A DNA stretch of 64,000 nt from Alphaproteobacteria bacterium. Lineage in GTDB: Bacteria > Pseudomonadota > Alphaproteobacteria > SP197. This document shows, piece by piece, positions 7,758 through 40,306 of this stretch. The notes under the pieces were generated by a model, which was given only the letters and a program-made list of their open reading frames with translations, did no database searches and was not told where the DNA came from. Position 1 is the stretch's first letter, and the number at the start of each line of letters is the position of its first letter. The DNA lies in contig VGDP01000014.1 in the NCBI GenBank assembly GCA_016869675.1, forward strand, positions 1-64,000, read 5' to 3'. The translations under genes and the position numbers were made by a program.

Positions 7758-7760
7758 GGT

Positions 7761-11185: not shown

Positions 11186-11445
11186 GGCCGCTCCGCCGTC
11201 GCGGGGTCGAAGGTCCGGATCACATCGTTGCTGACCGTGTCGCGCTCGGCCACGAACACGAAGTTGGTTGGCACGTGGCGCCACCACTCGAGCAGGCGCC
11301 CCGGCGGGTTCGCGGCGCGGAACACGTGACGCGCCCACGCGGCGTCGGACGCCGTGTCCGGGTCCGCGTCGTCGCGCACCGGTCCCAGGTACTGGAACTC
11401 GTCGATGTTGCGCGGTCCGTTCATGGGGCAGGTCAGCAGCTTCAT
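11182..11445 (-). CDS. soxD: Sarcosine oxidase delta subunit
   Basis: An 87-residue protein beginning MKLLTCPMNGPRNIDEFQY. It has the typical SoxD length and an N-terminal CPxxGPRxxxEF pattern; in the family this region binds zinc through Cys and His. It contains the usual WWRH segment (EWWRHVPTNFVFVAERDT). It sits 7 bases after soxB and overlaps soxA by 4 bases, the canonical B-D-A-G order. Only one of the usual pair of N-terminal cysteines is evident, so zinc binding may be altered. Confidence 0.88.
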   Translation of the reverse strand: MKLLTCPMNGPRNIDEFQYLGPVRDDADPDTASDAAWARHVFRAANPPGRLLEWWRHVPTNFVFVAERDTVSNDVIRTFDPATAERP

Positions 11446-11452
11446 GGCGCCC

Positions 11453-12694
11453 TCAGTGGCTCGCCGCGGTGGCGCCCATCTCGTTGAGCAGGGCGAAACG
11501 CTCGAAGCGCTCGAGCGCGAAGGGATGCAGGATGGCCGGGACACGGCCCGTGGCGATGCACTCGGCCAGGCGCTTACCGGCCACGCCGGTCGCCTTAAAT
11601 CCCCACGTGCCCCAGCCGCAGTCGAGCCACAGATTGGTCACCGGCGAGGCGCCCATGATCGGGCTGTAGTCGGGCGTCATGTCGGTGATGCCCGCCCATT
11701 GGCGCAGCACACGCACGCCCTGCAGGAACGGGAACAGGTGGACCGAGCCTTCGGCCAGGTGCTCCTTCATGTCCAGCGTCGAGCGGGTCGAATAGAGCTG
11801 GTAGGGGTCCGAGCCGCCGCCGATCACCACCTCGCCGCGCGAGGACTGCACCAGGTACGTGTGCAGGCTGACGGACGAGATCAGGATGTTCAGCCACGGC
11901 TTGACCGGCTGCGTCACCATAGCCTGCAGCGGGTAGGTGCGGATCGGCAGCTCGACGCCCGCCATCTGGGCGACGTGGTAGTTCATGCCGCCGCACGCGA
12001 TCAGCACGTGGTCGCACGCGATCGCGCCGCGGCTGGTGACGACGCCGGTCACGCGCCCGGCCGCGATCTCGATGCCGTCGACCTCGGTGCGCTGGTGGAT
12101 CTCGACGCCGCAGCGCGCGGCCTGGGCGGCGTAGCCCCACGCGACGGCGTCGTGGCGCGCGGTGGCGCCGTCGGCGTGCCACAGCCCGCCCAGGATCTCC
12201 AGCGCGCCGCCGTAGTCCATGTTGAGCTCGGGGCACAGCGCCTCGACGCCCTTGGGGTCGACGACCTCGATGCGGGTGCCCATGTACGTGCCGGCCTCGG
12301 CGCGCGTGTGGAACGCGCGCATCGTCGCCTCGGTGTGGGCGAGCGTGAGCTGGCCACGCTGGGAGAACATGATGTTGAAGTCGAGCTCGTCCGACATGGC
12401 GGCGAACAGCTCGAGCCCCTCCTTGTAGAACGCGATGCCTTGGGGTGTGAGGTAGTTCGAGCGGATCGTCGTCGTGTTGCGCGAGGTGTTGCCGCCGGCC
12501 AGCCAGCCCTTCTCGAGCACGGCGACGCGGCGGATGCCGTGGTAGCGGGCCAGATGATAGGCGCACGAAAGGCCATGGCCGCCGCCGCCGATGATGACCA
12601 CGTCGTAGCGCGGTTTCAGGTCTGGCGTCGCCGGGATGTCGCCCGTGACGGGGTAACGGTGGCTCAGGCCGTACTTCAGGAGGCGGAAGACCAT
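11453..12694 (-). CDS. soxB: Sarcosine oxidase beta subunit
   Basis: A 413-residue DAO-family flavoprotein with DVVIIGGGGHGLSCAYHLAR at about residue 31 for FAD and GGNTSRNTTTIRSNY near residue 67, typical of the beta subunit, which binds FAD and covalently holds FMN at the alpha/beta interface. The C-terminal CGWGTWGFKATGVAG segment is also characteristic. It oxidises the N-methyl group of sarcosine. It is the first intact large gene of the operon; upstream are a tiny ORF and a broken ammonia-lyase-like gene. Confidence 0.92.
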   Translation of the reverse strand: MVFRLLKYGLSHRYPVTGDIPATPDLKPRYDVVIIGGGGHGLSCAYHLARYHGIRRVAVLEKGWLAGGNTSRNTTTIRSNYLTPQGIAFYKEGLELFAAMSDELDFNIMFSQRGQLTLAHTEATMRAFHTRAEAGTYMGTRIEVVDPKGVEALCPELNMDYGGALEILGGLWHADGATARHDAVAWGYAAQAARCGVEIHQRTEVDGIEIAAGRVTGVVTSRGAIACDHVLIACGGMNYHVAQMAGVELPIRTYPLQAMVTQPVKPWLNILISSVSLHTYLVQSSRGEVVIGGGSDPYQLYSTRSTLDMKEHLAEGSVHLFPFLQGVRVLRQWAGITDMTPDYSPIMGASPVTNLWLDCGWGTWGFKATGVAGKRLAECIATGRVPAILHPFALERFERFALLNEMGATAASH

Positions 12695-12700
12695 GGAATA

Positions 12701-26152: not shown

Positions 26153-27088
26153 ATGTTGCATCGCCAAGGCCTGATCCTCGCCGCACTGGTGGCGGTAGGG
26201 CTGGGGTTCTTCGGGCTGCCCGCCCAGGCGCAGCCGTTCATGCAGGGGCCGAAGAAGTGTCAGGAGTGCCACGAGGCCGAAGTCACGGTCTGGGAAGGTA
26301 CCAAGCACTTCGCGTCGTTCCGTGAAGTCCACAAGAGCGACAAGGCCAAGGACATCGTCGCGGCCGTTGGCGGCGAAAAGAACATGAAGAAGAACGAATT
26401 GTGCAACCAGTGCCATTACTCGTTGATCGGCGAGGAGATGAAGGCCGAGGCGGGGCCGAGCTGCGAAAGCTGCCACGGGGCATCGTCCGACTGGTACCCG
26501 ATTCACAACGATTACGGCGGCAAGGACGTCAAGCGCGAGGACGAGACGGCCGAGCACAAGACGAAGCGCATCGCCGACGCCGCGGCGGCCGGCATGATCT
26601 GGCCGCACGAACGCTACGACATCGCGCTCAACTGTATGAGCTGCCACGGATTGGACCGCCCGAACGTGGACGGCGACACCCTGGCCAAGATGCTGGCCGC
26701 CGGCCACCCGGCGAAGCCCGATTACGAATTGGTCCAGTATAGCCAGGGCTCGGTGCTGCACCGCTTCTACCCGCCCGACGTGACCGTGAACAAGCCGCTG
26801 GACGCGGCCGGGCTGGCCGAGGCCTACATCCAGGGCGCGGCGGCCAAGCTGGTCACCGCGTCGGCCGCGCTGGCCAAGTCGAGCGATCCCGCGTACCAAG
26901 CGTTCCAGCAGAAGCGCATCGACCTGGCGCGCCAGGGCATCGAGGCGGTCGGCGACATGGCCGAGGCGCAGGCGCTGCTGACCGACCCGAGCGACGCGAA
27001 CGCGCGCGCGCTGGTCGCGGCCATCAAGGGCCAGGACCTGTCGGGCAAGGTCGGATCGCTGCTGCCGGATCCGGGTACGTACAAGTAA
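26153..27088 (+). CDS. Periplasmic tetraheme cytochrome c (c554-like)
   Basis: A 311-residue secreted cytochrome. The signal peptide (1-27) ends LPAQAQ. Four CXXCH sites are seen: CQECH 36-40, CNQCH 84-88, CESCH 104-108 and CMSCH 161-165. Segments such as WEGTKHFASFREVH and CESCHGASSDW resemble the cytochrome c554 / multiheme family. The last 130 residues lack hemes and are helical. The ATG at 26153 has GGGAG upstream and starts the signal peptide. A strong hairpin follows, so it may be expressed at a different level from the redox genes downstream, to which it probably donates or from which it accepts electrons. Confidence 0.85.
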   Translation: MLHRQGLILAALVAVGLGFFGLPAQAQPFMQGPKKCQECHEAEVTVWEGTKHFASFREVHKSDKAKDIVAAVGGEKNMKKNELCNQCHYSLIGEEMKAEAGPSCESCHGASSDWYPIHNDYGGKDVKREDETAEHKTKRIADAAAAGMIWPHERYDIALNCMSCHGLDRPNVDGDTLAKMLAAGHPAKPDYELVQYSQGSVLHRFYPPDVTVNKPLDAAGLAEAYIQGAAAKLVTASAALAKSSDPAYQAFQQKRIDLARQGIEAVGDMAEAQALLTDPSDANARALVAAIKGQDLSGKVGSLLPDPGTYK

Positions 27089-27094
27089 CCGAGG

Positions 27095-27143
27095 CCGGCG
27101 CGGCGGCGGGTTGTGGGGGCCCGCCGCCGCGCCGGGGTCTTTT
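27095..27143 (+). terminator. 16-bp hairpin with T-rich tail
   Basis: CCGGCGCGGCGGCGGG (27095-27110) pairs perfectly with its complement at 27120-27135 around a 9-base loop, followed by GGTCTTTT. It lies 7 bases after the tetraheme cytochrome stop and 25 bases before the next gene. It may act as an attenuator between the two. Confidence 0.7.
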
Positions 27144-27168
27144 CTGAGCGGAACGGGGGATTGGGGTC

Positions 27169-28845
27169 TTGGCGACTGTCGCGATGATGGCGCGTCCGCA
27201 GCGCTGGGACGCGCCGTTCGGCCAGGACATGACCGACGACGATGTCGAGAAACTGCTGCGGCAGTACCCGATCTCGCTGATCGACAAGGACAAGTTCCCC
27301 CAGCACACGCCGCTCGAAGGCATCCTGCGCAACGACACGCGCATCGTCCGCTACCAGGCGGGCGACATCGTCGTGCGCTCGGGCGATTACGGCAACTCCG
27401 CCTTCCTGGTGCTCGACGGCACGCTGCGCGTGGTGATCGCGCCCGAATTGCCGCGCGACCTGCTGGGGCGCCAGGACGTGGCGCGCAAGGGCTTCTTCGA
27501 GGCCCTGACCCAACTGTGGACCAACCGGCGCGTGCCCGAGGTGCGCGACGTGCGCCGCTACAACCGCTCGGCCATGCGCGCGGGCGGCGACAGCTCCCGC
27601 TCGGTCGTGTTCCTGCAGGACATCCCCGCGGTGCTCGATCGGCACCAGACCGCGACGTTGGGCGGCGGCGCGTTGTTCGGCGAATTGGCGGCGCTGGGGC
27701 GCGTGCCGCGCACGGCGACCGTGTTCGCCGAGAGCGAGGCGCGGCTCCTGGAGATCCGCTGGCAGGGCCTGCGCGAGATCCGCCGCTACGACGAGAGCTT
27801 CCGCAAGCGCATCGACGAACTCTATCGCGAGAACGCGCTGAAGGTGGCGCTGCGCGAGACGCCGGAGTTCGGCGGCCTCGACGAGACGGACCTGCAGGAG
27901 GTGGCGAACAGCGTGCTGTTCGAGACCCACGGCTCGTTCGACTGGTACATCAGCTACCAGCGCATGCGCGGCGCCGGCAAGGAAGGTGCCGCGCACGAAC
28001 CCGCCATCGCGCGCCAGGGCGACTATCCCGATGGCGTGCTGATGGTGCGCGCGGGCTTCGCGCGGCTGTCCATCGCGCTTGGCAACGGCGACCGCACGGT
28101 GACCTATCTCGGCGCCGGCGATCACTTCGCCATGTCCGAACTCTACGATTCGTGGGTCGAGGGCAAGCCGGCGCCGCTGCGCGCCTCGCTGACCGCGTTG
28201 GGCTACGTGGACGTGGTGCGCGTGTCGGCGCCGATCCTGGAGAAGTACGTCTTCCCGCGGCTGGCCGAACGGCCGCGCTCGCCGGTGGATGCCTCGGCGG
28301 CACGCGCCCTGACCGACGATGCGCTGCTCGAATGGGCGGTCAGCGAGCGGTTCATCAACGGCACCCAGGCGATGCTGATCGACCTGGACCGCTGCGTGCG
28401 CTGCGACGATTGCGTGCGCGCGTGCGCCTCGACTCACGGCGGCAACCCGCGCTTCGTCCGCCACGGCCGTACCTTCGATCACTGGATGATCGCCAACGCG
28501 TGCATGCACTGCGCCGACCCGGTGTGCATGATCGGCTGCCCGACCGGCGCCATCCACCGCACGCAGCAGGGCGGCATGGTCGTCATCAACGACGACACGT
28601 GCATCGGCTGCGGCACGTGCGCGAGCTCGTGTCCCTATCAGAACATCCGGCTGGTCGAGATCCGCGACGAGGCCGGCAACGTCCTGCTCGACCGCGACAC
28701 CCAGGCGCCGATCAACAAGGCGACCAAGTGCGATCTGTGCGCGGCCAACCCCGGGGGGCCGGCCTGCGTGCGCGCCTGCCCGCACGATGCGCTCCGCCGC
28801 GTCGGGTTCCACGACGACGACGTGTTCAGGAAGCGTGTGTCGTGA
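27169..28845 (+). CDS. Two cyclic-nucleotide domains fused to a 4x[4Fe-4S] ferredoxin module
   Basis: A 558-residue soluble protein starting at TTG 27169, or ATG 27184. Two CAP_ED-like cyclic-nucleotide-binding modules are seen: about 55-205, with GDIVVRSGDYGNSAFLVLDG and later GALFGELAALGRVPRTATV, and about 225-370, with GVLMVRAGFARLS and GDHFAMSELY. The C-terminal 160 residues are a polyferredoxin like those of DMSO-reductase/hydrogenase electron-transfer subunits. It has CVRCDDCVRAC, CMHCADPVCMIGC, CIGCGTCASSC and CDLCAANPGGPACVRAC: 16 Cys, enough for four [4Fe-4S] clusters. It has no signal peptide. Its stop overlaps the next start (GTGA). A cyclic-nucleotide-gated electron carrier is inferred; the domains could also be purely structural. 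Confidence 0.82.
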   Translation: MATVAMMARPQRWDAPFGQDMTDDDVEKLLRQYPISLIDKDKFPQHTPLEGILRNDTRIVRYQAGDIVVRSGDYGNSAFLVLDGTLRVVIAPELPRDLLGRQDVARKGFFEALTQLWTNRRVPEVRDVRRYNRSAMRAGGDSSRSVVFLQDIPAVLDRHQTATLGGGALFGELAALGRVPRTATVFAESEARLLEIRWQGLREIRRYDESFRKRIDELYRENALKVALRETPEFGGLDETDLQEVANSVLFETHGSFDWYISYQRMRGAGKEGAAHEPAIARQGDYPDGVLMVRAGFARLSIALGNGDRTVTYLGAGDHFAMSELYDSWVEGKPAPLRASLTALGYVDVVRVSAPILEKYVFPRLAERPRSPVDASAARALTDDALLEWAVSERFINGTQAMLIDLDRCVRCDDCVRACASTHGGNPRFVRHGRTFDHWMIANACMHCADPVCMIGCPTGAIHRTQQGGMVVINDDTCIGCGTCASSCPYQNIRLVEIRDEAGNVLLDRDTQAPINKATKCDLCAANPGGPACVRACPHDALRRVGFHDDDVFRKRVS

Positions 28846-29657
28846 GATCGTTCTCGACAACGCACGCCGTCAGCTGGGTCGTGCTCGGCGCCCTGTTCGC
28901 CGGCCTCGCCCTGCACCGCGACCAGGCGGAGGCGGGCCTGGGCGAGCCGGCCCAGATCACCGGCTACGTGCTGTTCGCGCTGTTCGTCGCGCTGGCGTCG
29001 TTCAACGCGCGCAAGCGCCTGTCGATGGTGCCGCTGGGTCGGGCCCGCCTGTGGGCCGTGGTCCACACGTTCGGTGGCGTGTTCGCGCTGGCGCTCTACT
29101 GGCTGCACACCCAGAGCCTGTGGCCGACCGGCACCTACGAGCAGCTACTCGCGGGGCTGTTCTATCTTGTGACTCTCACCGGGATCCTCGGCTGGTTGAT
29201 GCAGCGGCTGTTCCCCGCGCGGCTGACGCAGACCGGCCTCGAGATCATCTACGAGCGCATCCCGCACGAACTGGCGCGCGTGCGCGAGGACGCCGAGGCG
29301 ATCGTCATGGATTGCACGCGCGAGCTGCAGAGCGACACGCTGGCCCGGCACTACTTCGAATCGCTCGCTTGGTTCTTCCGGCGTCCGCGCTTCATCCTGA
29401 GCCATCTGTTCGGTGGCCAGCATGGCGTGCACTGGATACACCAGCAGCGGCTGACCGTGGCGCGCTATCTGAGCCAGCGCGAGACCGAGTACCTCGACGC
29501 CCTGACCGAGCTCGGCTACGCGAAACTCCGCCTTGATCTGCACTACGTTCTTCAGTCGGCCATGAAGAAATGGCTGCTGGTCCATGTGCCGCTTTCGGTG
29601 GCGCTGCTGGGCATAGCGCTCTGGCACCTCGTCCTCGTGCACGTCTACGCCCTATGA
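28842..29657 (+). CDS. Five-helix membrane protein, possible b-type cytochrome
   Basis: A 271-residue inner-membrane protein starting at GTG 28842. Helices are predicted at about 9-22, 38-55, 67-87, 96-114 and 248-270, with a large soluble segment of about 130 residues before the last. Histidines sit in or beside the helices (VVHTFGGVFALALYWLHT; LVHVPLSV; ALWHLVLVHVYAL), a layout like diheme cytochrome b561/ferric-reductase-type proteins. It would pass electrons between the cytoplasmic Fe-S protein before it and the decaheme cytochrome after it. Starts and stops overlap on both sides. Heme ligation is a prediction. Confidence 0.65.
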   Translation: MRSFSTTHAVSWVVLGALFAGLALHRDQAEAGLGEPAQITGYVLFALFVALASFNARKRLSMVPLGRARLWAVVHTFGGVFALALYWLHTQSLWPTGTYEQLLAGLFYLVTLTGILGWLMQRLFPARLTQTGLEIIYERIPHELARVREDAEAIVMDCTRELQSDTLARHYFESLAWFFRRPRFILSHLFGGQHGVHWIHQQRLTVARYLSQRETEYLDALTELGYAKLRLDLHYVLQSAMKKWLLVHVPLSVALLGIALWHLVLVHVYAL

Positions 29658-31630
29658 CTGAACGTCGCATCCGCAACGAACCCGGCCTCGACGTCGAGGC
29701 GTTTCGTCACGATCGCAGCGTCTACGAACGGCCGAACGCGCGGCTGCGCTGCGGCCGCGCGTCGTTCTGGGCGAAGCCGTGCCTGCGCGGACCCAACGCG
29801 GACGGCTCGTGCGGCGGCGTCGCCGATTGCCAGCCGGCGCGGGGCAAGACCGGCCGTTTCGAGTGCCGCCGCCCGAAGCACCTGGGTGGACCGTGCGCGA
29901 CGGGGCCCGGGCCGGACGGGGCCTGCGCCCATCACCGGCCTCCGTGCGTGCCCCAGCCGACGCTGCGCACCATGCGCGGTCGGCTCGCGCTGGTGGTGTT
30001 CTGCGCCGTGGTGGCCCTGGTCATCGCCTTCTCGGGCGCGGTGCGCATCGGCTCCGCCGGCATCAACTCGCTCGAACCCGGCCCGCTGTTCGGCCCGCAC
30101 GCGGGGTTCGCGCCCAAGGGGGCCTGCAGCACGTGCCACGAGGCCCACGGTGGCGATCTATCGACCTTGGTGGCGGCGTTCGTCGAGCCGGCCGACATGA
30201 CCGAGGCGTGCACCTCGTGCCACACCTTCGCCGGCGAGGCGCGCAAGGCACACAACGTCAGCTTCGCCGATCGCCCCGACCTGCCCGACGTAACGTGCAA
30301 CCAGTGCCATCGCGAGCACCTGGGCGCCGACGCCGATCTCACGGCCATCGACGACCGGGTGTGCGCGACGTGCCACACCGCACCCTTCGCGACCTTCGTG
30401 CCCGGGCATCCGGCCTTCAGCCCGGGGTACCCGCACCGGCGCGAAACCTCGATCAAGTTCGATCACGCCAGCCACATCAACAAGCACTTCAGCGACGCCA
30501 AGGTGGCGGACCGCGCGCCGCAAAGCTGCGCCGTCTGTCACGACGTGACGACGGCGACCAACGCCGTGCTGCCGGTGAAGGCGGCGGAAACATGTGACAG
30601 CTGTCACGGGAGTCAGATCACCCAGCGTGATATCGTCGTCTTCCGTTTGCCCGAGCTCGCCACGAGCGAGATCGACGCCGAGGCGGTACGCGACGTGTGC
30701 GGCCCGACCCTGGCGGATTTCGAACGGCTCGAGGAACGCATGGCCGCCATGGAGGCGGGCGAGACGATGGTCGACGAGGAAGCGGAGGACGAGGAGTTCG
30801 AGAGCGTGTCGCTGGATGAGATGGCGCCGCTCGCGTCCTACGTGCTCGACGTCGACGTGGACGACATGGACGCTTACGGCGAGCCGGTGCAGGACCTGGT
30901 GATGGCCATGGCCGAGGAAGGCTCGGTGCCGCTGGCCGCCGCGCTCGAGGACCGGCTGGGCGCACCCACGACGGCCCTGCTCGCCGGGCTCAACCCCGAG
31001 CTGGTCAAGCGCGTCGCCTGCGCCTGGGCCGCCAATGTCGAGTACGAGCCGCCGGCGGATCCGGACAACGGCGGCTGGTTCGGCGACTATCTGGAGTTGA
31101 AGTATCGGCCGATGGGTCACGCCGACCCGGTCCTGCGCGCCTGGATCGAGGCGTCGCTCGCCGCGCCCGACGAGGACGAGCGGACCGAGATGCTGCGTGA
31201 GACCCTGCTCGACCCCGAGGAGGGCCCGGGTGCCTGCATCAAGTGCCACGCCGTGCACGATGCCGCGGCCGATGCGGACGGGCCGCCGCTCATGGTCGAG
31301 TGGACGTACCACGCCGAAGGGCAGCGTGCGTATTACTTCTATTCGCACCGCGCGCATCTGAGCCTCGTCCACCCCACCGATGTGGCCATGTCCACCCAAG
31401 AGGCGGGCTGCCAGACATGCCATCGACTGGACTCGGCCGCCGACTTTGCGGCATCATTCGACGACGCCGATCCGATGACGTTCGCCAGCAACTTCGAGGG
31501 CATCCGGATTGAGACGTGTGCCAAGTGCCACGCCGAACGGGAGGTACGGGCTGATTGCCGGCTCTGCCACCGCTATCACCTCGAAGCCACCTTCAAGCCC
31601 ATTATGATGGGCGCGTTTTCGCAGGAATGA
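29654..31630 (+). CDS. Membrane-anchored decaheme cytochrome with Cys-rich head
   Basis: A 658-residue protein. Residues 1-100 form a Cys-rich head with 8 Cys at 33, 43, 53, 59, 71, 81, 91 and 98, and two similar units, CLRGPNADGSC and CATGPGPDGAC. One transmembrane helix follows at about 110-130 (LALVVFCAVVALVIAFSG), then a periplasmic part with ten CXXCH hemes: CSTCH, CTSCH, CNQCH, CATCH, CAVCH, CDSCH, CIKCH, CQTCH, CAKCH and CRLCH. Six lie before an acidic, heme-free insert (about 345-525) and four after it. The ATG overlaps the previous stop and its own stop overlaps the next ATG. It is probably the quinol- or b-heme-linked entry into the periplasm. Confidence 0.82.
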   Translation: MTERRIRNEPGLDVEAFRHDRSVYERPNARLRCGRASFWAKPCLRGPNADGSCGGVADCQPARGKTGRFECRRPKHLGGPCATGPGPDGACAHHRPPCVPQPTLRTMRGRLALVVFCAVVALVIAFSGAVRIGSAGINSLEPGPLFGPHAGFAPKGACSTCHEAHGGDLSTLVAAFVEPADMTEACTSCHTFAGEARKAHNVSFADRPDLPDVTCNQCHREHLGADADLTAIDDRVCATCHTAPFATFVPGHPAFSPGYPHRRETSIKFDHASHINKHFSDAKVADRAPQSCAVCHDVTTATNAVLPVKAAETCDSCHGSQITQRDIVVFRLPELATSEIDAEAVRDVCGPTLADFERLEERMAAMEAGETMVDEEAEDEEFESVSLDEMAPLASYVLDVDVDDMDAYGEPVQDLVMAMAEEGSVPLAAALEDRLGAPTTALLAGLNPELVKRVACAWAANVEYEPPADPDNGGWFGDYLELKYRPMGHADPVLRAWIEASLAAPDEDERTEMLRETLLDPEEGPGACIKCHAVHDAAADADGPPLMVEWTYHAEGQRAYYFYSHRAHLSLVHPTDVAMSTQEAGCQTCHRLDSAADFAASFDDADPMTFASNFEGIRIETCAKCHAEREVRADCRLCHRYHLEATFKPIMMGAFSQE

Positions 31631-33381
31631 CGACCATGCGCACCGCGATGCTCCGCTCGCTCGCCCTCCTCGCCATCGGCGCGGTCCTGTGGGCCAACCC
31701 CGCAGCCGCCGAAACGACGACCGGGGAAGGGGATCCGCACGTCGATCTCTTCTCGGAGGAATCGTACCCCTCGGCATCGCAGTGCAAGACCTGCCACGAG
31801 CAGATCTACAACGAGTGGCGCTCGTCCAATCACGCGTACGCCGGCATCTCGCCGATGTTCCACAAGTTCGAGCAGAAAATCAACGATCTGTCGGTCGGCA
31901 CCATCGGCACGTTCTGCGTGCGCTGCCATCAGAGCGGCGGCACCGTGCTGGGCGAGGAGCGCTGGGCGCCACTGTGGGAGCGCAGCCAGATCAGCCGCGA
32001 GGGCGTGACCTGCATCACCTGCCACCGCGTGGCGGAGCAGTACACGCGCGGCACCAACGGCGAACGGCGCATCATCCCCGGCAACATCCACGAGCCGGTC
32101 TACGGCCCGATCGGCGGCGACGGCGTCGCCAAGGTGGTTGAGGACGCGTCCTACTGGAAGGTCGCCACCAGCCCCGAGGAGCGCGGCGCCAAGATCCACA
32201 CCAAGGGCGTCAAGTTCGACCAGCTCTCGAAGTCCGAGTTCTGCGCCTCGTGCCACCAGGTGGCCGTCAACGTCGGCATCAAGCTCGAAGTCGTGTGGGA
32301 CCAGTACCGCGCCTCGCCGGCTGCCGCCGAAGGCGTGAGCTGCCAGGACTGCCACATGAGCCAGGATCCCGGCCGCGCCTCGGGCTTCACCACCGGCCCC
32401 ATCGCCGTGGTCAACGGCGAACCCGTCGACGAGACGCGCACGCACCACGACCACTCGTTCGCCGGCCCTGGCTACTCGATCGCCCACCCCGGCATCTTTC
32501 CGCACAATGTCGATTCCGAGCAGTGGACCATCGAGGAATGGCTGCAGTTCGACTACCGCGCGGGCTGGGGCAGCGAGGAGTTCGAGGAGAAGATCGACGG
32601 CGGCGAGCTCGAGGTCGCCTTCCCCGAGGTCTGGGCCGATCCGTTCGACCGCGAGGAAGCGTGGGAGATCGTGCAGGCCAACATCGAGGCCAACCTCGAG
32701 AAGCAGGAGATGCGCCGGCGCGTCATGGAGAACGGCTCGCGCATCGACGGCCCGTACTTCGACGGTACGCCGAGCGTCGGCTCGTCGCTCTCCTTCACCT
32801 ACAACATCACGAACACGAACCCCGGCCACAACCTGCCGTCCGGCTCGCTCGGTGCGCAGCCCGAGATCTGGCTGAACGTCGCGCTCATCGACCCCGACGG
32901 CAACAACGTCTGGGAGTCCGGCTACGTGGACTCGGCCGGCGACATGGCCGACCTGCGCTCGGTCGACGTGCTCGAAGGCCGACTGCCGGCCGACAACCAG
33001 CTCGTCAACCTGCAGTCGAAGTTCCTGACCACCAACGTCAAGGGCACCGACCGCGAGATGTCGCTGCCGATCAACGTGGACGTCGACCAGCTGCCGTTCC
33101 TGCGGCCCTCGGGGACGCCGACCACGGTGATCAACCATCCGCCCTTCGTGCGCATGGAGGCCCGCTCGATCCCGCCGCTCGGCGTGCGCGAGGCCAGCTA
33201 CACCGTCCCGGGCGAGCTGATCACCAAACCCGGCACCTACAAGCTGGCCGTGCGCATGCGCAACCGGGCCGAGCCGATCTATTTCATGCGCTTCGTCGAG
33301 GCGACGAGCGAGATGGAGCAGTCCATGAACCAGTGGATGATCGACGTCCATCCCTACACTGTCGAATTTGTCGCGCAATAG
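31627..33381 (+). CDS. Periplasmic pentaheme cytochrome c
   Basis: A 584-residue secreted protein with a signal peptide at 1-28 (ends NPAAAET). Five CXXCH motifs lie in the first 245 residues: CKTCH 53-57, CVRCH 97-101, CITCH 129-133, CASCH 206-210 and CQDCH 239-243. QIYNEWRSSNHAYAGISPMF is typical of cytochrome c554-like heme segments. The last 300 residues have no heme and end in a beta-rich domain (SFTYNITNTNPGHNLPSGSL ... GTYKLAVRMRNRAEPIYF). A histidine cluster, THHDHSFAGPGYS, follows the last heme. It is coupled to the decaheme gene by ATGA and could be a terminal reductase or an electron shuttle to the barrel. The substrate is unknown. Confidence 0.82.
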   Translation: MTTMRTAMLRSLALLAIGAVLWANPAAAETTTGEGDPHVDLFSEESYPSASQCKTCHEQIYNEWRSSNHAYAGISPMFHKFEQKINDLSVGTIGTFCVRCHQSGGTVLGEERWAPLWERSQISREGVTCITCHRVAEQYTRGTNGERRIIPGNIHEPVYGPIGGDGVAKVVEDASYWKVATSPEERGAKIHTKGVKFDQLSKSEFCASCHQVAVNVGIKLEVVWDQYRASPAAAEGVSCQDCHMSQDPGRASGFTTGPIAVVNGEPVDETRTHHDHSFAGPGYSIAHPGIFPHNVDSEQWTIEEWLQFDYRAGWGSEEFEEKIDGGELEVAFPEVWADPFDREEAWEIVQANIEANLEKQEMRRRVMENGSRIDGPYFDGTPSVGSSLSFTYNITNTNPGHNLPSGSLGAQPEIWLNVALIDPDGNNVWESGYVDSAGDMADLRSVDVLEGRLPADNQLVNLQSKFLTTNVKGTDREMSLPINVDVDQLPFLRPSGTPTTVINHPPFVRMEARSIPPLGVREASYTVPGELITKPGTYKLAVRMRNRAEPIYFMRFVEATSEMEQSMNQWMIDVHPYTVEFVAQ

Positions 33382-33391
33382 GAGCGTTCCT

Positions 33392-34918
33392 ATGGTGGGG
33401 ATTTGGGTACGCGGCGCGCGCCACTGGCGCGTGGCCTTGGGGGCGGGGCTGGGCGTGGCGCTGAGCGCCGGCGCGGCCTGGGCCGGGGATGAGTTCACGC
33501 CCAAGATGTCGCCCGATGCGACGAGGGTGGAGCACGACTCCGACGTCTTCCGCTCCGATCCGACGTACGAGGACAAGCCCTACGACATCGAGGCGCAGAT
33601 CCAGATCTACGGCGGCAAGCGCGCGGTCGTGGCGCCGCGCCCGCTGCTGGAGTTGGGGCGGGAGATCTACACCGCCGGGCCGTTCCAGCAAGCGTACACG
33701 TTCCTCGGCGAGAAGAATCCGGTCATCCCGCGCTTCTACATCTACGGCGACGTGCAGACCGTGCTGGGCTACGCCGACAATGGCGCCGTCGAGCTGGGCC
33801 AACTCGCCGCTCGCGCGAACATCGATCTCGACCTGCAGATCACCTCGACCGAGCGCCTGCACGCGTTCGTCCGCCCGCTCGATCACGACGGCGCCTTCAC
33901 GCGCTGCGAGCTGTTCGGCGACGACGACGACGACAACTGCAACGAGGGGCTGAGCACCGAGATCCAGACCCTGTTCTTCGAGGGCGACGTCGGGCCGATC
34001 ATGATGGGCCTGACCGGCGAGGAGAACCTGATCGACGTGCCCTTCGCGGTGGGCTTCACGCCCCTCCTGTTCCAGAACGGCGTCTGGTACGAGGACGCGG
34101 CGATCGGCGGCGCGTTCACCATCCCGTCGCGCAACTCGCCCGCGCTCGACATCTCGAACATGGACGTGACGTTCTTCGCCATGTTCGACGAGGTCGATTC
34201 GGGTGCCTTCCGCAACAACGCCAACCAGGTCGCCAAGCACGGCGTCAACATCTACGGCGTCAAGACCTTCATCGAGGCGGGCGAGCGGTACTGGGAGCTG
34301 GGCTACGGCTACTCGGACGGCGAAGGCGCGCGCGACGACTTCAGCTACCACAACCTGACCGCGGCGGTGTCCGCCCGGTACGGGAACAAGGTCAGCAACT
34401 CGACGCGCGTGATCTGGAACTTCGGGCAGGACCCCGACGGCACGGCGCAGCAGACCGCCGACGGCGCGCTGTTCCTGTTCGAGAACTCGCTGATCGTCAA
34501 CGAACCCGCGACGATCGTGCCGTACTTCAACCTGTTCCTCGGCCTCGACCGGCCCCAGGGCCTGGCGCAGCAGGCGCGCGGCGTGCTCAAGAACACCGGC
34601 CTCAACTTCGAGACCGACGCGATCACCCAGTTCCCCAAGCTGGACGACACCGGCAACAACACCTGGGGCGGCGCCATCGGCATCCAGTACCTGTTCAACC
34701 TGGACCAGCAGCTCGTGTTCGAGGTCGCGACCAACCAGGTGATCGAGGGCCGCGGCGAAGTGGGTCGTCCCGCGTTCGACGACGAGTACGCGCTCGGCGT
34801 GCGCTACCAGATCCCCATCACCAAGGCGTGGATCGTGCGCGCCGACGCCATGTACGGCTTCCGCGACGGGGTCGACGACATCCGTGGCACGCGGCTCGAA
34901 TTCCGGCGCAAGTTCTGA
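33392..34918 (+). CDS. Outer-membrane beta-barrel protein of the cytochrome cluster
   Basis: A 508-residue exported protein with a signal peptide at 1-31 (ends GAAWAGD). The body shows alternating hydrophobic strands (LHAFVRPL, YWELGYGYSDG, TRVIWNFGQD, ALGVRYQIPI) and ends in Phe (EFRRKF), the usual outer-membrane barrel signature. An acidic loop, ELFGDDDDDNCNEG, holds the two cysteines and could bind metal. AGGAG precedes the ATG at 33392. Placed between multiheme cytochromes and a reductase, it is a candidate MtrB-like porin sheath, but no sequence similarity to MtrB was recognised. Confidence 0.72.
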   Translation: MVGIWVRGARHWRVALGAGLGVALSAGAAWAGDEFTPKMSPDATRVEHDSDVFRSDPTYEDKPYDIEAQIQIYGGKRAVVAPRPLLELGREIYTAGPFQQAYTFLGEKNPVIPRFYIYGDVQTVLGYADNGAVELGQLAARANIDLDLQITSTERLHAFVRPLDHDGAFTRCELFGDDDDDNCNEGLSTEIQTLFFEGDVGPIMMGLTGEENLIDVPFAVGFTPLLFQNGVWYEDAAIGGAFTIPSRNSPALDISNMDVTFFAMFDEVDSGAFRNNANQVAKHGVNIYGVKTFIEAGERYWELGYGYSDGEGARDDFSYHNLTAAVSARYGNKVSNSTRVIWNFGQDPDGTAQQTADGALFLFENSLIVNEPATIVPYFNLFLGLDRPQGLAQQARGVLKNTGLNFETDAITQFPKLDDTGNNTWGGAIGIQYLFNLDQQLVFEVATNQVIEGRGEVGRPAFDDEYALGVRYQIPITKAWIVRADAMYGFRDGVDDIRGTRLEFRRKF

Positions 34919-34926
34919 GGCCCGCC

Positions 34927-36204
34927 ATGCTCGACCAGCTCGTCCAGCTCGCCGCCCTTCTGTTCCTGGTCGCCTCCGGCGCGTACGTGGCCATGCTGGT
35001 GGTGGGACGCGCCCGCGCCGCCGGGATCATGCAGCGTTCCGCCGAGGTGGAAACGGCGCTGCTGCGCGCCAACGTCGACCTCGTCATGGACAAGCGCCGG
35101 TTCGAGGCCAAGCGCTCCGAGCTGGTGTGGAACGGCTTCCGCAAGTTCGAGATCGTGCGCAAGCAGCAGGAGGGCGGCGGCATCTGTTCGTTCTATCTGC
35201 AACCGCACGACAAGAAGCCGCTGCCGCCGTTCCTGCCCGGCCAGTACCTGACCTTCCAGCTGCACATCCCCGGCCAGCGCAAGCCGGCGATCCGCTGCTA
35301 CTCGCTGTCGGACAGCCCGAACCACCCGGATTACTACCGCGTCTCGATCAAGAAGGTGCTGCCGCCGCGCGACAAGCCGGACGTCCCGCCGGGCCTGTCG
35401 TCGTCGTTCTTCCACGACCAGCTCGACGAAGGCGATATCCTGGACGTCAAGGCGCCGGGCGGGCACTTCTTCCTGGACCTGACCAAGCCCTCGCCGGTGG
35501 TACTGATCGGCGGCGGCGTCGGCCTGACGCCCGTGCTCAGCATGCTGAACGCCATCTGCGAATCGGGCTCCAAGCGCGAGACGTGGTTCCTCTATGGCTG
35601 CCGCCACGGTGACGACCTGGTGATGCGCGCCCACTTCGACCGCATCCGGCGCGAGCACGACAACGTCCGCATCTTCATCTTCTACTCGGACGCGCGCGAG
35701 GGCATCGACGAGGCGGGCCGCGATTACGACGTGGGCAGCCGCATCTCGGTCGATTGGATGAAGGCGAACCTGCCGTCGAGCAACTACGAGTATTACCTGT
35801 GCGGCCCGCCGCCGTTCATGGAGTCGCTGGTCAGCGGCCTGGAAGGCTGGGGAGTGCCCGAGAAGGACATCAACTTCGAGGCGTTCGGCCCGGCCACGGT
35901 AAAGCGCACGCCGGCCGCCCAGGCCTCGGCCGAGTCGGCCGGTGCCAGCAAATTCCAGGTGACGTTCGCCAAGTCGGGCAAGACCGTGGCTTGGTCGCCC
36001 GAGATCGGATCGCTGCTCGATTTCGCCGAGGAAAACGGCGTGGCCATCGAGTTCGGTTGCCGTGCGGGCAACTGCGGCACGTGCCTGACGGCGATCAAGG
36101 TGGGCGACGTCACCTACGTCAACCCGCCCGGTTCGCCGCCCGAGGCCGGGTCGTGCCTGGCCTGCGTCTCGGTGCCCAAGTCGAACCTGACGCTCGACGC
36201 CTGA
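34927..36204 (+). CDS. Membrane-anchored FNR-type flavin/[2Fe-2S] reductase
   Basis: A 425-residue protein. An N-terminal helix (about 5-26, LAALLFLVASGAYVAMLVV) anchors it. A ferredoxin-NADP reductase module follows: FAD site RCYSLSDSPN near residue 122, then nucleotide site LIGGGVGLTPVLSM and CGPPPFMESLV. The C-terminal 95 residues are a plant-type ferredoxin with CRAGNCGTC and a later Cys in GSCLAC, giving four cluster ligands. It would link NAD(P)H to a one-electron carrier, as in Hcr/Hmp-like or Na+-NQR F-like reductases. It closes the redox operon and is followed by a terminator. Confidence 0.85.
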   Translation: MLDQLVQLAALLFLVASGAYVAMLVVGRARAAGIMQRSAEVETALLRANVDLVMDKRRFEAKRSELVWNGFRKFEIVRKQQEGGGICSFYLQPHDKKPLPPFLPGQYLTFQLHIPGQRKPAIRCYSLSDSPNHPDYYRVSIKKVLPPRDKPDVPPGLSSSFFHDQLDEGDILDVKAPGGHFFLDLTKPSPVVLIGGGVGLTPVLSMLNAICESGSKRETWFLYGCRHGDDLVMRAHFDRIRREHDNVRIFIFYSDAREGIDEAGRDYDVGSRISVDWMKANLPSSNYEYYLCGPPPFMESLVSGLEGWGVPEKDINFEAFGPATVKRTPAAQASAESAGASKFQVTFAKSGKTVAWSPEIGSLLDFAEENGVAIEFGCRAGNCGTCLTAIKVGDVTYVNPPGSPPEAGSCLACVSVPKSNLTLDA

Positions 36205-36227
36205 TTCGCCGGCGCCGGGGCCGCGCG

Positions 36228-36250
36228 GGCACGGTAGAGGTGCCTTTTTT
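36228..36250 (+). terminator. Intrinsic terminator of the redox operon
   Basis: GGCAC (36228-36232) pairs with GTGCC (36240-36244), followed directly by six T (36245-36250). It lies 24 bases after the reductase stop. Confidence 0.75.
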
Positions 36251-36333
36251 ATGCGAGGCCACGTGGTAAGATGAGGGCGTTAGGCGCGTGGAGGGCTCCC
36301 GCGCCGAATTGGGACATTTCGAGGTTACGCATC

Positions 36334-37929
36334 ATGTCGTTTCGCTGGCTGCGGTGTGGGGCCCTCGCGTCGGTCGCCGCGATCGGTCTGGGCGTCGGCG
36401 ACGCGACGGCGCAGTCCATCGAGGACGAGGTCGCCTACCTGCTGCGCAACCACCCGCAGCTTAAGGGCCTGCGCAACCAGATCGAGGCGTCCGACGAAGG
36501 CATCAACCGGGCGTTCGCTGCGTACCTGCCCAAGGTCGATGTAACCGGCGACTACGGCTACGAGTCGACCGACAGCCCGGCGCGCCGCGACGAAGCGACC
36601 GACGCCGAGAGGCTGGGCACGCCGCGCACGAAGGGCACGCTGACCGTGACCCAGAACCTCTTCGACGGCTGGCGCGGCAGCTCCGAGTACAACGCGGCGC
36701 AGCTGACCAAGCGCGGCGCCGAGATCACGCTCGACAACACGACGCAGAACGTCGTCTTCGAGGGTATCGCGGCCTACGTCGGCGTGCTGCGCAACCGCCG
36801 TCTGGTCGAACTCGCCGGCCAGAACGAGGAGACGATCAAGGTCCAGCTCAACCTGGAGAACGAGCGCGTGCAGCGCGGCTCGGGCATCGCGCTCGACGTG
36901 CTGCAGTCCAAGGCGCGCCTGCAGATCGCGCGCGAACGGCGCGTCGCCTTCGAAGGCGAACTGGCCAACGCGGTCACGCGCTACGTGCAGGTGTTCGGGC
37001 ACGCGCCGAACGTCGATTCCATGACGACGCCCGAGGTGGCGCCGTCGCTGATGCCGCTGTCGGTCGACGATGCTGTCGCCATCGCCTTGGTCGAGCATCC
37101 CGAGACCAAAAACAGCGCCAACCTGATCGACCTGGCGCAGCAGCGCCGGCGCACAGCGAAGTCGGATTTCTTCCCGCGCGTCGACCTGGTCGGCAAGATC
37201 AACTACGAGGACAACGTGTCCGGCGTGAATAGCGTGCGCCGCGACCAATCGGTAATCGTGCTCGGCACGTGGAAGCTGTTCTCGGGCTTCTCGACGCGGG
37301 CCTCGGTGGCCGAGGCCGCGTACCAGTACGCCGCGTCGGTCGACAACCGCAACTTCGTCAACCAGAAGATCGTCGAGGACGTGCACCTGTCCTGGGAGAA
37401 CCTGCAGACGGCGCAGCGCCGACTGCAGCTGCTGTCCAACGCCGTGAACATTGCGATCGAGGTGCACCAGGCCAGCGCCACCCTGCGCGACACCGGCAAG
37501 GAAACGGTGTTGAACGTGCTGGACGCGCAGAACGAGGTGTTCAACGCCCAGATCAACGAGGCTGCGGCCGATCACGACGCGCGCCTCGCGGCCTACCGCC
37601 TGCTGCTGCCCATGGGCCGGCTCGACGCCAAGCATCTGGTACCGGCACTGGCGGGTATTGACGTCGATCCGGCCGCGCACGCCGCCGAGGAGGACGTTGC
37701 AGCGGCGGCGGTCGAACCGGAGACGCTTGCGGTCGCCGAGCCGGTGGAACCGGCGGCCGAGACTCTCGCCGCGATCGAGCCGGCGGCCGGCACGGCCGAG
37801 CCGACCACGTTCATCTCCGGCTTCGGCACCGTCGTGGTGCCGGCGGCCGAGCCGACGCCGGCGATCATCTTCGTCACCACGCCAAAACCGGTCGACCCCA
37901 ACCTCGCGCGCAGCTGGTCGTTCAACTGA
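36334..37929 (+). CDS. TolC-family outer-membrane efflux/secretion channel
   Basis: A 531-residue exported protein. The signal peptide (1-27) ends GDATAQ. Two TolC repeats are seen: SIEDEVAYLLRNHPQLKGLR with VTQNLFDGWRG in the first, and SVDDAVAIALVEHPETK with GTWKLFSGF in the second. The tail after residue 445 is an Ala/Glu/Pro-rich extension ending ARSWSFN, not found in E. coli TolC. The ATG at 36334 was chosen for the signal peptide. With the ABC exporter and adaptor at 40442-43467 it can complete a type I secretion system. Confidence 0.88.
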   Translation: MSFRWLRCGALASVAAIGLGVGDATAQSIEDEVAYLLRNHPQLKGLRNQIEASDEGINRAFAAYLPKVDVTGDYGYESTDSPARRDEATDAERLGTPRTKGTLTVTQNLFDGWRGSSEYNAAQLTKRGAEITLDNTTQNVVFEGIAAYVGVLRNRRLVELAGQNEETIKVQLNLENERVQRGSGIALDVLQSKARLQIARERRVAFEGELANAVTRYVQVFGHAPNVDSMTTPEVAPSLMPLSVDDAVAIALVEHPETKNSANLIDLAQQRRRTAKSDFFPRVDLVGKINYEDNVSGVNSVRRDQSVIVLGTWKLFSGFSTRASVAEAAYQYAASVDNRNFVNQKIVEDVHLSWENLQTAQRRLQLLSNAVNIAIEVHQASATLRDTGKETVLNVLDAQNEVFNAQINEAAADHDARLAAYRLLLPMGRLDAKHLVPALAGIDVDPAAHAAEEDVAAAAVEPETLAVAEPVEPAAETLAAIEPAAGTAEPTTFISGFGTVVVPAAEPTPAIIFVTTPKPVDPNLARSWSFN

Positions 37930-38002: not shown

Positions 38003-40306
38003 CTACTTCGACGTGGCGACGAACACGCCGTCCCAATCGGGGCCGGGCGGGTTGGCCTCGTAGATGTCCAGACGCTCGTCGTAGAGGTCGTAGAGCGCGG
38101 CGAGCGCGCCGTCGAGGGCGCGGCTCTCGGCCACCAGGGCTCGCGCGCCGGCCCAGTCCTGCCGGCGGTAGGCGGCCAGCATCGCGGCGTGGCGCTCGGC
38201 CAGGTCGCGGAACGCGGGCGTCGCCGCGTGCGCCGGGTCGCCCAGCACCGTGAACACGCGCACGGCTTCCGCCTTGCCCTTCACCTGGATCAGGTCGAGC
38301 TCGAGCAGGGCGAAATCGTCGGCGCGCGCCTTGGTGTTCTCGCCGATGACGATGCCGACGCCGTAGGTCTTCGACTGGCCCTCCAGGCGCGAGGCCAGGT
38401 TCACGTCGTCGCCGATCACCGAATAGTCGAAACGCTGGTCGGACCCCATGTTGCCGACGAACACCTCGCCCGAATTGACGCCGACACCGATGTTGATGGG
38501 CACGAAGGCGCGGCCCGCGGCCGTGGCCTCGGCCTCGAGCTGGGCATTCAGCTCGCGCGTCTTGGCCTGCATGGCCAGCGCGGTCGTGCAGGCGTGGCGG
38601 CCGTGGTCGTCGTCCGTGATCGGCGCGTTCCAGAACGCCATGATCGCGTCGCCCATGTACTTGTCGATGGTGCCGCCCTTGGCCATGATCAGGTCGGTCA
38701 TCGGCGTCAGGTAGCGGTTGATTAGCCGCACCAGCCCTTCCGGATCGGTCTTGAACGTCTCCGAGATCGACGTGAAGCCGCGGATGTCGCTGAACATGAT
38801 GGTCATGCCGCGCCGCTCGCCGCCCAGGCGGAGTTGGTCGGGGTGGTCGGCGAGCTGCTCGACCAGCGCCGGCGACAGGTACTGGGCGAAGGCCGTGCGC
38901 ACCTGCTTCTTCTGCGCCTGCTCGCGCACGTAGTTGAGGTAGGTCAGCGCGGTGTAGAGGACGAACGACGTGATGGCCGGGTAGACCATGTCGTAGAGCT
39001 GGCCATGCAGGCTGAACATGGCCCACGCGCCACCCAGCTGCCCGCCGATGGCCACCAGCACGACCAGCAGGCCCCACGCCGCGCCCAGCAGCGGCACGGC
39101 GAACATCAGCGCGACGCCGACGCCGACCAGGGTCACCAGCTCGACGCCGATGGCGTCGTTCGGCCGGTGCAGGAATGGCGAGCGCACATCGAAACCCTTG
39201 CCCTCGGCCTCGGCCTGGGCGGCGAGCTGCAGCTGCTGGATGTAGAGCATTATGCTTTCCAGCAATTGGGCGTGGATGTCGACGCCGGGCACGAACGGGT
39301 CCAGCGGGGTCGCCTTGATGTCGAGCAAGCCCACCGCCGAGGTGCCCAGGATCACCCAGCGCCGTTGCAGCCGGTCCGGGCTGACCCGACCGTCCAGCAC
39401 GTCGCGCGCCGAGATGTAGACCGCCTCGCGGCGTTCCTGCGTCCACGGCGCGAAGTGCAGCCACGCGCGCCCCTTTTCGTCCGTCGGGATCTCCAGGCCC
39501 TTGAACAGGATGCTGACAATGCCGATCCGCGGATCCCACTTGATGCCGACGGTCTTCTGCCCGGTGGCGACGCGCAGCATTTCGACCGACAGGGTGGGGT
39601 AGATGACATTGTCCTCGCCGCGGAAGATCAGCGGCACGTTGCGCACGACGCTGTCGATCTCGGCGTCGATGTTAAACACGCCGAGGCCCGCCGCGCCGTT
39701 CTCCAACGTCTCGATGTTGCGGGTGATGCCAGGGTTGGGCAGCAGGAACTGGTAACCCTCGCCGCCGCCCTCGCCGACGGCGCGGGTGCTCTTCCACGCG
39801 TAGGTGGCCTTAACCGCCTTGGGCCGGCCCTCGTTGTGCGCGCTGGGGTAGGGCGTGGTGGACTGGCCCAGCACGGTCGGGATGCGCGCGATCGTCGCGG
39901 CCATGACATTGTCGTTGTTGGGGATCGCCAGCAACGCGTCGCGCGCGGCCTGCGCCAAGCCCTGGTACTGCTCGACGATGCGGTCGGGTGAGGTCCGGTC
40001 AGCCTCGGGGAACACGATGTCGAAGCCGACGATCGTCGTGCCGACGGCCGTCAGCTTGCCGATCAGGTCGGCGATCAGGGTGCGCGGCCACGGCCATTGG
40101 CCGTAGGCGGCCAGGGTCGGATCGTCGATGTCGATCACCGCGACGGGCAGCGGGGTCGGTTCGCGCGGCTCGATGCGCTGGAACACGTCGAAGGTCTTGA
40201 GCCGCATGACCTTGAGCGGCACCGGGTCCCACCAGCGCACGGCGACGCACCCCGCGATCAGCATCAGGCCGACCAGGATCGAGAACTGCCACGCCTTCAG
40301 CCGCAT
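38003..40306 (-). CDS. CHASE2-domain class III adenylate/guanylate cyclase
   Basis: A 767-residue membrane protein. One helix lies at 8-24. A CHASE2 sensor domain (about 45-390, with VAVIDIDDPTLAAYGQWPWP and WVILGTSAVGLLDIKATPLD) faces the periplasm. Three helices follow (about 415-500), then a class III cyclase domain with MTIMFSDIRGFTSISE, YMGDAIMAFWNAP and SVIGDDVNLASRLEGQ. The metal-binding Asp of SDIRGFT is present. A C-terminal helical tail of about 90 residues follows. The start at 40306 was chosen because the upstream frame runs over the exporter promoter. It makes cAMP or cGMP in response to an unknown periplasmic signal. Confidence 0.88.
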   Translation of the reverse strand: MRLKAWQFSILVGLMLIAGCVAVRWWDPVPLKVMRLKTFDVFQRIEPREPTPLPVAVIDIDDPTLAAYGQWPWPRTLIADLIGKLTAVGTTIVGFDIVFPEADRTSPDRIVEQYQGLAQAARDALLAIPNNDNVMAATIARIPTVLGQSTTPYPSAHNEGRPKAVKATYAWKSTRAVGEGGGEGYQFLLPNPGITRNIETLENGAAGLGVFNIDAEIDSVVRNVPLIFRGEDNVIYPTLSVEMLRVATGQKTVGIKWDPRIGIVSILFKGLEIPTDEKGRAWLHFAPWTQERREAVYISARDVLDGRVSPDRLQRRWVILGTSAVGLLDIKATPLDPFVPGVDIHAQLLESIMLYIQQLQLAAQAEAEGKGFDVRSPFLHRPNDAIGVELVTLVGVGVALMFAVPLLGAAWGLLVVLVAIGGQLGGAWAMFSLHGQLYDMVYPAITSFVLYTALTYLNYVREQAQKKQVRTAFAQYLSPALVEQLADHPDQLRLGGERRGMTIMFSDIRGFTSISETFKTDPEGLVRLINRYLTPMTDLIMAKGGTIDKYMGDAIMAFWNAPITDDDHGRHACTTALAMQAKTRELNAQLEAEATAAGRAFVPINIGVGVNSGEVFVGNMGSDQRFDYSVIGDDVNLASRLEGQSKTYGVGIVIGENTKARADDFALLELDLIQVKGKAEAVRVFTVLGDPAHAATPAFRDLAERHAAMLAAYRRQDWAGARALVAESRALDGALAALYDLYDERLDIYEANPPGPDWDGVFVATSK

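What the first reader, a model, noticed from the sequence alone, without database searches (positions are those of the whole stretch)
26153..36204. Possible new trans-envelope multiheme electron-transfer system
Six genes from 27169 to 36204 are tightly linked; the first four overlap start-to-stop and a terminator closes the run. They encode a cytoplasmic four-cluster Fe-S protein, a b-type-like membrane protein, a decaheme cytochrome on a membrane anchor, a pentaheme periplasmic cytochrome, an outer-membrane barrel and an NAD(P)H-type flavin/[2Fe-2S] reductase. A tetraheme cytochrome precedes them. With 19 CXXCH sites in three proteins plus a barrel, this resembles the logic of porin-cytochrome conduits, yet none of the parts looks like MtrABC or the known Pcc proteins. 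The CXXCH motifs and gene overlaps are seen directly; the pathway and its direction are inferred.
Basis: partly seen in the sequence, partly recalled or inferred. Interest (0 to 1): 0.85.

Follow-up and report, generated by a model that had tools for sequence, protein, structure and literature searches.

The report
NAD(P)H-linked trans-envelope multiheme wire
A conserved set of seven neighbouring genes in many unrelated bacteria appears to build an electrical wire from NAD(P)H inside the cell across the inner membrane towards the outer membrane, with a built-in cyclic-nucleotide sensor; what it reduces is unknown, though distant relatives point to iron.

Summary
The gene run is real: seven genes, 26153-36204, with 4+10+5 CXXCH sites. 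It is a widespread conserved system (Alpha- and Gammaproteobacteria, Planctomycetota, Myxococcota, Uabimicrobium). The barrel follows the pentaheme in 69 of 69 loci with room for it; all seven genes sit together in 21 loci. There are two modules. The inner-membrane module (FNR, tetraheme, Fe-S protein, diheme cytochrome b, decaheme) also occurs alone. The outer module (pentaheme, barrel) was found only with at least part of the inner one, even where unlinked; Hyphomicrobium lacks the Fe-S gene but keeps the rest.

Ligand counts fit a wire: 16 Cys for four clusters, two His-X13-His helices for two b hemes, ten extra invariant His for ten c hemes. A Sphingobium relative fuses the Fe-S protein to an NAD(P)H flavoprotein.

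An MtrAB-type conduit is not supported: the predicted barrel is an OprD/MOMP-type fold of about 18 strands. Pentaheme relatives sit beside FTR1 iron permeases, so I favour a cNMP-controlled, NAD(P)H-driven envelope reductase, perhaps for Fe(III). Direction, gating and substrate are inferred.

The parts
26153..27088 (+). tetraheme c-type cytochrome with signal peptide (cytochrome c554 family)
   Evidence: 4 CXXCH; PF13435 E=2e-11; exactly 4 invariant non-motif His (H52, H118, H185, H203) in 22 aligned rows
27095..27135 (+). 18-pair hairpin followed by GGTCTTTTCT, possible terminator or attenuator after the tetraheme gene
   Evidence: consensus match only
27169..28845 (+). cytoplasmic protein: cNMP-binding domains plus C-terminal ferredoxin part with 16 Cys (four [4Fe-4S]); translation may start at ATG 27184/27187
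   Evidence: PF00027 E=3e-22 and Fer4 families; cassette FGELAALGRVPRTATV kept in 20 of 21 rows; 15 of 16 Cys invariant, the last in 95%
28842..29657 (+). integral membrane protein, predicted four-helix diheme cytochrome b (H75-X13-H89, H248-X13-H262)
   Evidence: these 4 His are the only invariant ones in 41 rows down to 19% identity; AF2 model all-helical, pLDDT 93; distant Sphingobium homologue has a sub-threshold hit to PF01292 cytochrome b561
29654..31630 (+). decaheme cytochrome: N-terminal domain with two 4-Cys repeats (C-x9-C-x9-C-x5/6-C), one TM helix, ten c-type hemes
   Evidence: 10 CXXCH and exactly 10 other invariant His in 23 rows; 8 N-terminal Cys kept in 21 of 21 non-Hyphomicrobium rows; no Pfam hit to the N-terminal domain
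31636..33381 (+). pentaheme cytochrome with signal peptide (start could be ATG 31627) and conserved C-terminal domain (GHNLPSGSLGAQPE)
   Evidence: 5 CXXCH in all 37 rows; profile matches pentaheme c552 (5ze8) E=1e-10 over all five hemes
33392..34918 (+). outer-membrane beta-barrel, about 18 strands, with conserved N-terminal periplasmic extension
   Evidence: AF2 pLDDT 82; Foldseek best hits MOMP, OprD/Occ, AlgE; next to the pentaheme in 69 of 69 loci
34927..36204 (+). membrane-anchored flavin/NAD(P)H/[2Fe-2S] reductase (FNR)
   Evidence: PF00970, PF00175, PF00111; invariant CYSLS, GxG-TP and ferredoxin Cys positions in 17 rows
36227..36250 (+). intrinsic-terminator-like hairpin
   Evidence: GGGCACGGTAGAGGTGCCT TTTTTA
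38006..40306 (-). CHASE2-class III nucleotidyl cyclase, possible source of the cNMP signal (associated, not part of the run)
   Evidence: PF05226 E=9e-48, PF00211 E=1e-20; related cyclases near the block in 7 other loci; about 10 cyclase genes in this genome

Best explanation
A cyclic-nucleotide-responsive, NAD(P)H-linked electron wire that runs from the cytoplasm across the inner membrane and periplasm to the outer membrane. NAD(P)H is oxidised at the cytoplasmic face by the FNR (flavin, [2Fe-2S]). Electrons pass to the four-cluster cNMP-binding protein, then across the inner membrane through two stacked b hemes. They continue through the ten bis-His hemes of the membrane-anchored decaheme, with the tetraheme as periplasmic shuttle. 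They end at the outer module, where the pentaheme works with an OprD-like porin to reduce an acceptor in the outer periplasm or at the surface. Fe(III) is the likeliest acceptor, for reductive iron handling rather than anaerobic respiration. cAMP or cGMP controls entry. Shown: gene content, conservation, co-occurrence, cofactor-ligand patterns, cNMP cassette, and (by prediction) barrel fold class. Inferred: the order of carriers, export direction, cNMP control, iron as substrate.
For: Co-occurrence: 13 of 299 sampled Pseudomonadota genomes have a strong membrane-protein match (E<1e-35), and the same 13 have the Fe-S protein and the decaheme; FNR and tetraheme are usually beside them even without the outer module. 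Outer module: the barrel follows the pentaheme in 69 of 69 loci, and inner-module genes are present even when unlinked. Cofactors: 16 Cys for four clusters, two H-X13-H helices, and extra invariant His equal to heme number in decaheme and tetraheme. Fusion: in Sphingobium the Fe-S/cNMP protein carries an N-terminal pyridine-nucleotide flavoprotein (PF13738, PF07992) and is followed by homologues of the membrane protein and the decaheme. Regulation: intact phosphate-binding cassette and a CHASE2 cyclase near the block in the window and 7 loci. Iron: pentaheme relatives with both domains (E about 1e-30) in Nitratiruptor and two Shinella plasmids lie between an imelysin gene and an FTR1 iron permease, with an OprD porin and ferritin in Nitratiruptor. 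Lifestyle: no RuBisCO in this genome, so uptake for CO2 fixation by that route is unlikely.
Against: No FTR1, imelysin or OprD relative is linked to the block itself in any locus searched. The FTR1 link comes from relatives at about 22-27% identity. The 69 of 69 figure is conditional on loci fetched with the pentaheme. The cyclase link could partly be chance, since this genome has about ten. Hyphomicrobium and Filomicrobium genomes lack the cNMP/Fe-S protein yet keep the rest, so cNMP control is not universal. Nothing shows that electrons cross the outer membrane. Two stacked b hemes could carry electrons in either direction.
Confidence: 0.5

Rival explanations
1. Porin-cytochrome conduit: the pentaheme sits in the barrel and passes electrons to the cell surface, as MtrAB does.
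For: Strict pentaheme-barrel pairing (69 of 69); conserved N-terminal periplasmic extension of the barrel; in Uabimicrobium the pentaheme has a lipobox-like start by eye.
Against: Predicted barrel is about 18 strands and OprD/MOMP/AlgE-like; textbook geometry gives a backbone radius near 16.5 A against 23.5 A for 26 strands, tight for a 60 kDa cytochrome with a large C-terminal domain; no MtrB_PioB family member in the genome; no surface cytochrome gene seen in the run.
Confidence: 0.17
2. Oxyanion or small-molecule reductase: the OprD-like porin imports the substrate and the pentaheme reduces it in the periplasm, as proposed for ExtI and ExtKL of Geobacter with selenite and tellurite.
For: ExtI is a porin beside pentaheme ExtKL, and its loss lowers selenite and tellurite reduction (PMC5877670); barrel fold is that of substrate-specific channels; pentaheme-family members are proposed to have open hemes (PMC11976967); three extra invariant His in the C-terminal domain.
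Against: Profile similarity to MccSep (presumed ExtKL) is weak and partial (E=0.03); five invariant His in the heme domain could fill all five hemes, leaving no open site; FTR1 context of relatives points to iron.
Confidence: 0.18
3. The same wire runs inward: electrons from an external or periplasmic donor are taken up and reduce NAD(P)+ or ferredoxin.
For: The parts are reversible in principle; an NAD(P)-binding FNR and Fe-S carriers would suit NAD(P)+ reduction.
Against: No RuBisCO in this genome; carriers include heterotrophs such as Hyphomicrobium and Pirellulales; relatives of the pentaheme accompany iron import.
Confidence: 0.12

Closest known systems
MtrCAB and other porin-cytochrome conduits
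   Same: periplasmic multiheme c cytochromes with all-His ligation, an outer-membrane barrel, electron flow across the envelope
   Different: about 18-strand OprD-like barrel instead of the 26-strand MtrB sheath; no MtrB_PioB in the genome and no MtrC-family hit over cut-off for the decaheme; appears to start from NAD(P)H and Fe-S proteins, not from a quinol-oxidising CymA
Geobacter extHIJKLMNOPQS cluster (PMC5877670)
   Same: porin plus pentaheme (ExtI, ExtKL), decaheme (ExtN), tetraheme (ExtS) and b-type cytochrome (ExtP) in one cluster
   Different: Ext has a Rieske protein, rhodanese and 12-heme ExtM; no cNMP/Fe-S protein or FNR is described there; the pentaheme matches MccSep only weakly
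Pentaheme c552 / PHC family (5ze8, cable-bacteria PHCs; PMC11976967)
   Same: five-heme domain of the pentaheme matches c552 over all five hemes (E=1e-10)
   Different: longer, with a strongly conserved C-terminal domain and a constant barrel partner
imelysin - DUF4405 - pentaheme - FTR1 operons (Nitratiruptor, Shinella)
   Same: homologous pentaheme including the GHNLPTG domain, a small cytochrome b-like DUF4405 protein, an OprD porin in Nitratiruptor
   Different: no cNMP/Fe-S protein, decaheme or FNR among the genes listed there; an iron permease instead
NADPH oxidase / ferric reductase (NOX, FRE) electron path
   Same: NAD(P)H, flavin, then two b hemes stacked across the membrane to an outside acceptor (family knowledge)
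   Different: separate polypeptides, extra Fe-S protein and c-heme chain; no homology detected

Membership tests
MtrCAB / porin-cytochrome conduit | MtrB/PioB-type barrel (PF11854) | tested here: not met
   Pfam scan of the stop-to-stop barrel frame gives no family; PF11854 absent from the genome
MtrCAB / porin-cytochrome conduit | barrel large enough to hold a multiheme cytochrome (26 strands in MtrB) | tested here: not met
   AF2 model about 18 strands, OprD/MOMP-like; 26 strands in MtrB
MtrCAB / porin-cytochrome conduit | cytochrome and barrel genes paired and co-inherited | tested here: met
   69 of 69 loci
MtrCAB / porin-cytochrome conduit | electron transfer across the outer membrane | not testable with these tools
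   needs proteoliposomes or cells
Geobacter Ext (ExtI/ExtKL) | pentaheme homologous to ExtKL | tested here: inconclusive
   NF040886 E=1e-11 but 44 bits against a cut-off of 250; MccSep E=0.03 over 48 residues
Geobacter Ext (ExtI/ExtKL) | barrel homologous to ExtI | not tested
   ExtI sequence not fetched
Pentaheme c552 / PHC family | five-heme domain alignable with c552 | tested here: met
   5ze8 residues 41-268, E=1e-10
cNMP-binding (CNB) domain proteins | phosphate-binding cassette with Glu and Arg | tested here: met
   FGE and the following Arg kept in 20 of 21 rows
cNMP-binding (CNB) domain proteins | binds cAMP or cGMP | not testable with these tools
   needs a binding assay
NOX/FRE ferric reductase | ferric-reductase transmembrane domain | tested here: not met
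   no Pfam or PDB match by sequence or fold; only the H-X13-H pattern is shared

The most novel reading that the evidence does not exclude
A previously undescribed class of trans-envelope electron-transfer complex, spread over several phyla, in which a second messenger (cAMP or cGMP) directly gates electron flow from NAD(P)H through a cNMP-binding Fe-S protein, a diheme cytochrome b and a membrane-anchored decaheme to interchangeable outer modules.
Probability: 0.35. Interest if true: 0.88.

Novelty: new variant of a known kind. Interest (0 to 1): 0.72.

Why it matters
Known envelope-crossing electron chains mostly start from quinol and serve anaerobic respiration or metal oxidation. This one seems to start from NAD(P)H, carries its own cyclic-nucleotide sensor on an electron carrier, and is found in bacteria not known for extracellular electron transfer (Hyphomicrobium, Pirellulales). 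Several hosts are cultured, so its role can be tested directly. It would show how such organisms export reducing power, and would link second-messenger signalling to electron flow without transcription.

Tried and rejected
Ordinary porin next to cytochromes by chance: rejected by 69 of 69 pairing and by co-occurrence even when unlinked. Already named reductase operon: no NCBIfam equivalog reaches its cut-off for any of the seven proteins among the hits shown. MtrB family: absent. Electron uptake for Calvin-cycle autotrophy: no RuBisCO. Plasmid search with the membrane protein: no hit. Foldseek of the membrane protein: no match with E below 0.4, so its fold could not name it. FTR1, imelysin, DUF4405 or OprD relatives near the block: none. 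Seven literature searches for this gene set, its hosts or cNMP terms found no paper that I recognised as describing it; most were seen by title and start of abstract only, and subscription papers are not in that library. Early calls in a wrong frame (11-13, 15, 16) gave no result.
Full report
Check of the observation. The seven genes are present as described. Four-base overlaps join the Fe-S, membrane, decaheme and pentaheme genes, and short gaps follow. CXXCH counts are 4, 10 and 5. The tetraheme gene is set apart by the strongest hairpin of the region, 18 pairs at 27095-27135 with a T-rich tail, so it may be transcribed separately. The closing hairpin at 36227-36245 is plausible, but such sites are no more frequent than in shuffled sequence.

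The inner-membrane parts. Its first domain keeps the phosphate-binding cassette FGELAALGRxPRTATV in 20 of 21 rows. Of its 16 Cys, 15 are invariant and the last is kept in 95%: four [4Fe-4S] sets. The membrane protein has only four invariant His in 41 rows, arranged H75-X13-H89 and H248-X13-H262, the pattern of a four-helix diheme cytochrome b (family knowledge). A distant homologue in Sphingobium has a sub-threshold hit to the cytochrome b561 family.

The soluble and anchored cytochromes. The decaheme has ten CXXCH His and exactly ten other invariant His, so every heme can be bis-His ligated. The tetraheme likewise has four and four. That is what a wire, not an enzyme, would show. The decaheme begins with an unannotated domain of two 4-Cys repeats, kept in all 21 non-Hyphomicrobium rows of the alignment and missing in the two Hyphomicrobium rows. 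The Hyphomicrobium and Filomicrobium genomes tested also lack the cNMP/Fe-S protein, which suggests that the two interact. The FNR has flavin, NAD and [2Fe-2S] domains.

Conservation. A scan of 84,980 species genomes with the pentaheme gave 79 named loci from several phyla. All seven genes occur together in 21, and the barrel follows the pentaheme in all 69 loci with room for it; this figure is conditional on loci fetched with the pentaheme. In Planctomycetota the order is rearranged but the two modules stay intact.

Modularity. In an even sample of 299 Pseudomonadota genomes, 13 have a strong match to the membrane protein (E<1e-35), and the same 13 have the Fe-S protein and the decaheme. Two further genomes have a distant form of the Fe-S protein. 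Only three have the barrel, all among the 13. Elsewhere the inner module FNR - tetraheme - Fe-S - membrane - decaheme stands without the outer module. Seven genomes whose fetched locus showed only pentaheme and barrel were searched whole, and all seven have the Fe-S gene elsewhere. So the outer module goes with the inner one, but not the reverse.

Direction of the wire. In Sphingobium plasmids the Fe-S/cNMP protein is fused to a pyridine-nucleotide flavoprotein and followed by homologues of the membrane protein and of the decaheme, the latter with a sub-threshold FHA-like domain in place of the Cys-rich one. This fusion supports NAD(P)H as the cytoplasmic end. It does not fix the direction.

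The outer end. The barrel model (pLDDT 82) matches MOMP, OprD/Occ and AlgE in the PDB, not MtrB. For 18 strands the textbook backbone radius is about 16.5 A against 23.5 A for 26 strands. I therefore do not favour a cytochrome inside the barrel, although I could not run a complex prediction. The pentaheme goes with c552 by profile (E=1e-10 over all five hemes). Relatives with both domains, including the C-terminal GHNLPTG motif, occur in Nitratiruptor and two Shinella plasmids, between an imelysin gene and an FTR1 iron permease; two of the three were seen to have a DUF4405 cytochrome b-like gene directly before the pentaheme. This is the best hint of a substrate: iron. The alternative, an oxyanion as for ExtI/ExtKL (PMC5877670), is kept as a rival.

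Regulation. A CHASE2 cyclase lies 1.8 kb downstream of the run on the other strand (38006-40306), and relatives of it lie near the block in seven other loci. This genome has about ten such cyclases, so chance is not excluded, but with the intact cassette it makes cNMP control the natural reading.

Known or new. No NCBIfam equivalog shown reaches its cut-off for any of the seven proteins, and I found no description in the papers I could search; most were seen by title only. As a working logic it resembles porin-cytochrome conduits and the Geobacter Ext cluster, but it fails the barrel tests for MtrCAB and is inconclusive for Ext. I call it a new variant of trans-envelope multiheme electron transfer.

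Noticed in passing
L112:8684-13856 (Sphingobium herbicidovorans plasmid pMSHV): Distant form of the inner module: flavoprotein-cNMP-FeS fusion, diheme b-like protein, decaheme with FHA-like start, near further multiheme genes; annotated only as hypothetical or generic proteins.
   Followed up: partly
L091:6562-13294 (Nitratiruptor plasmid) and L123:6155-11626 (Shinella sp. HZN7): imelysin - DUF4405 - pentaheme - FTR1 operon, a likely reductive iron-import unit with a homologue of the window's pentaheme.
   Followed up: partly
window 29654-29986: N-terminal 8-Cys domain of the decaheme (two C-x9-C-x9-C-x5/6-C repeats) with no Pfam family; could bind Fe-S or zinc.
   Followed up: partly
window 38006-40306: CHASE2-class III cyclase on the minus strand beside a TolC-like gene (36271-37929).
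   Followed up: partly
window 5235-12700: By eye, a trimethylamine-methyltransferase-like protein and FAD-dependent oxidoreductase genes suggest methylated-amine use; not checked by family search.
   Followed up: no
window 62716-63999: By eye, a squalene-hopene-cyclase-like gene runs off the window end.
   Followed up: no
genome of L029 (Candidatus Uabimicrobium amorphum): Five decaheme-like places in one genome, one next to the Fe-S gene.
   Followed up: no
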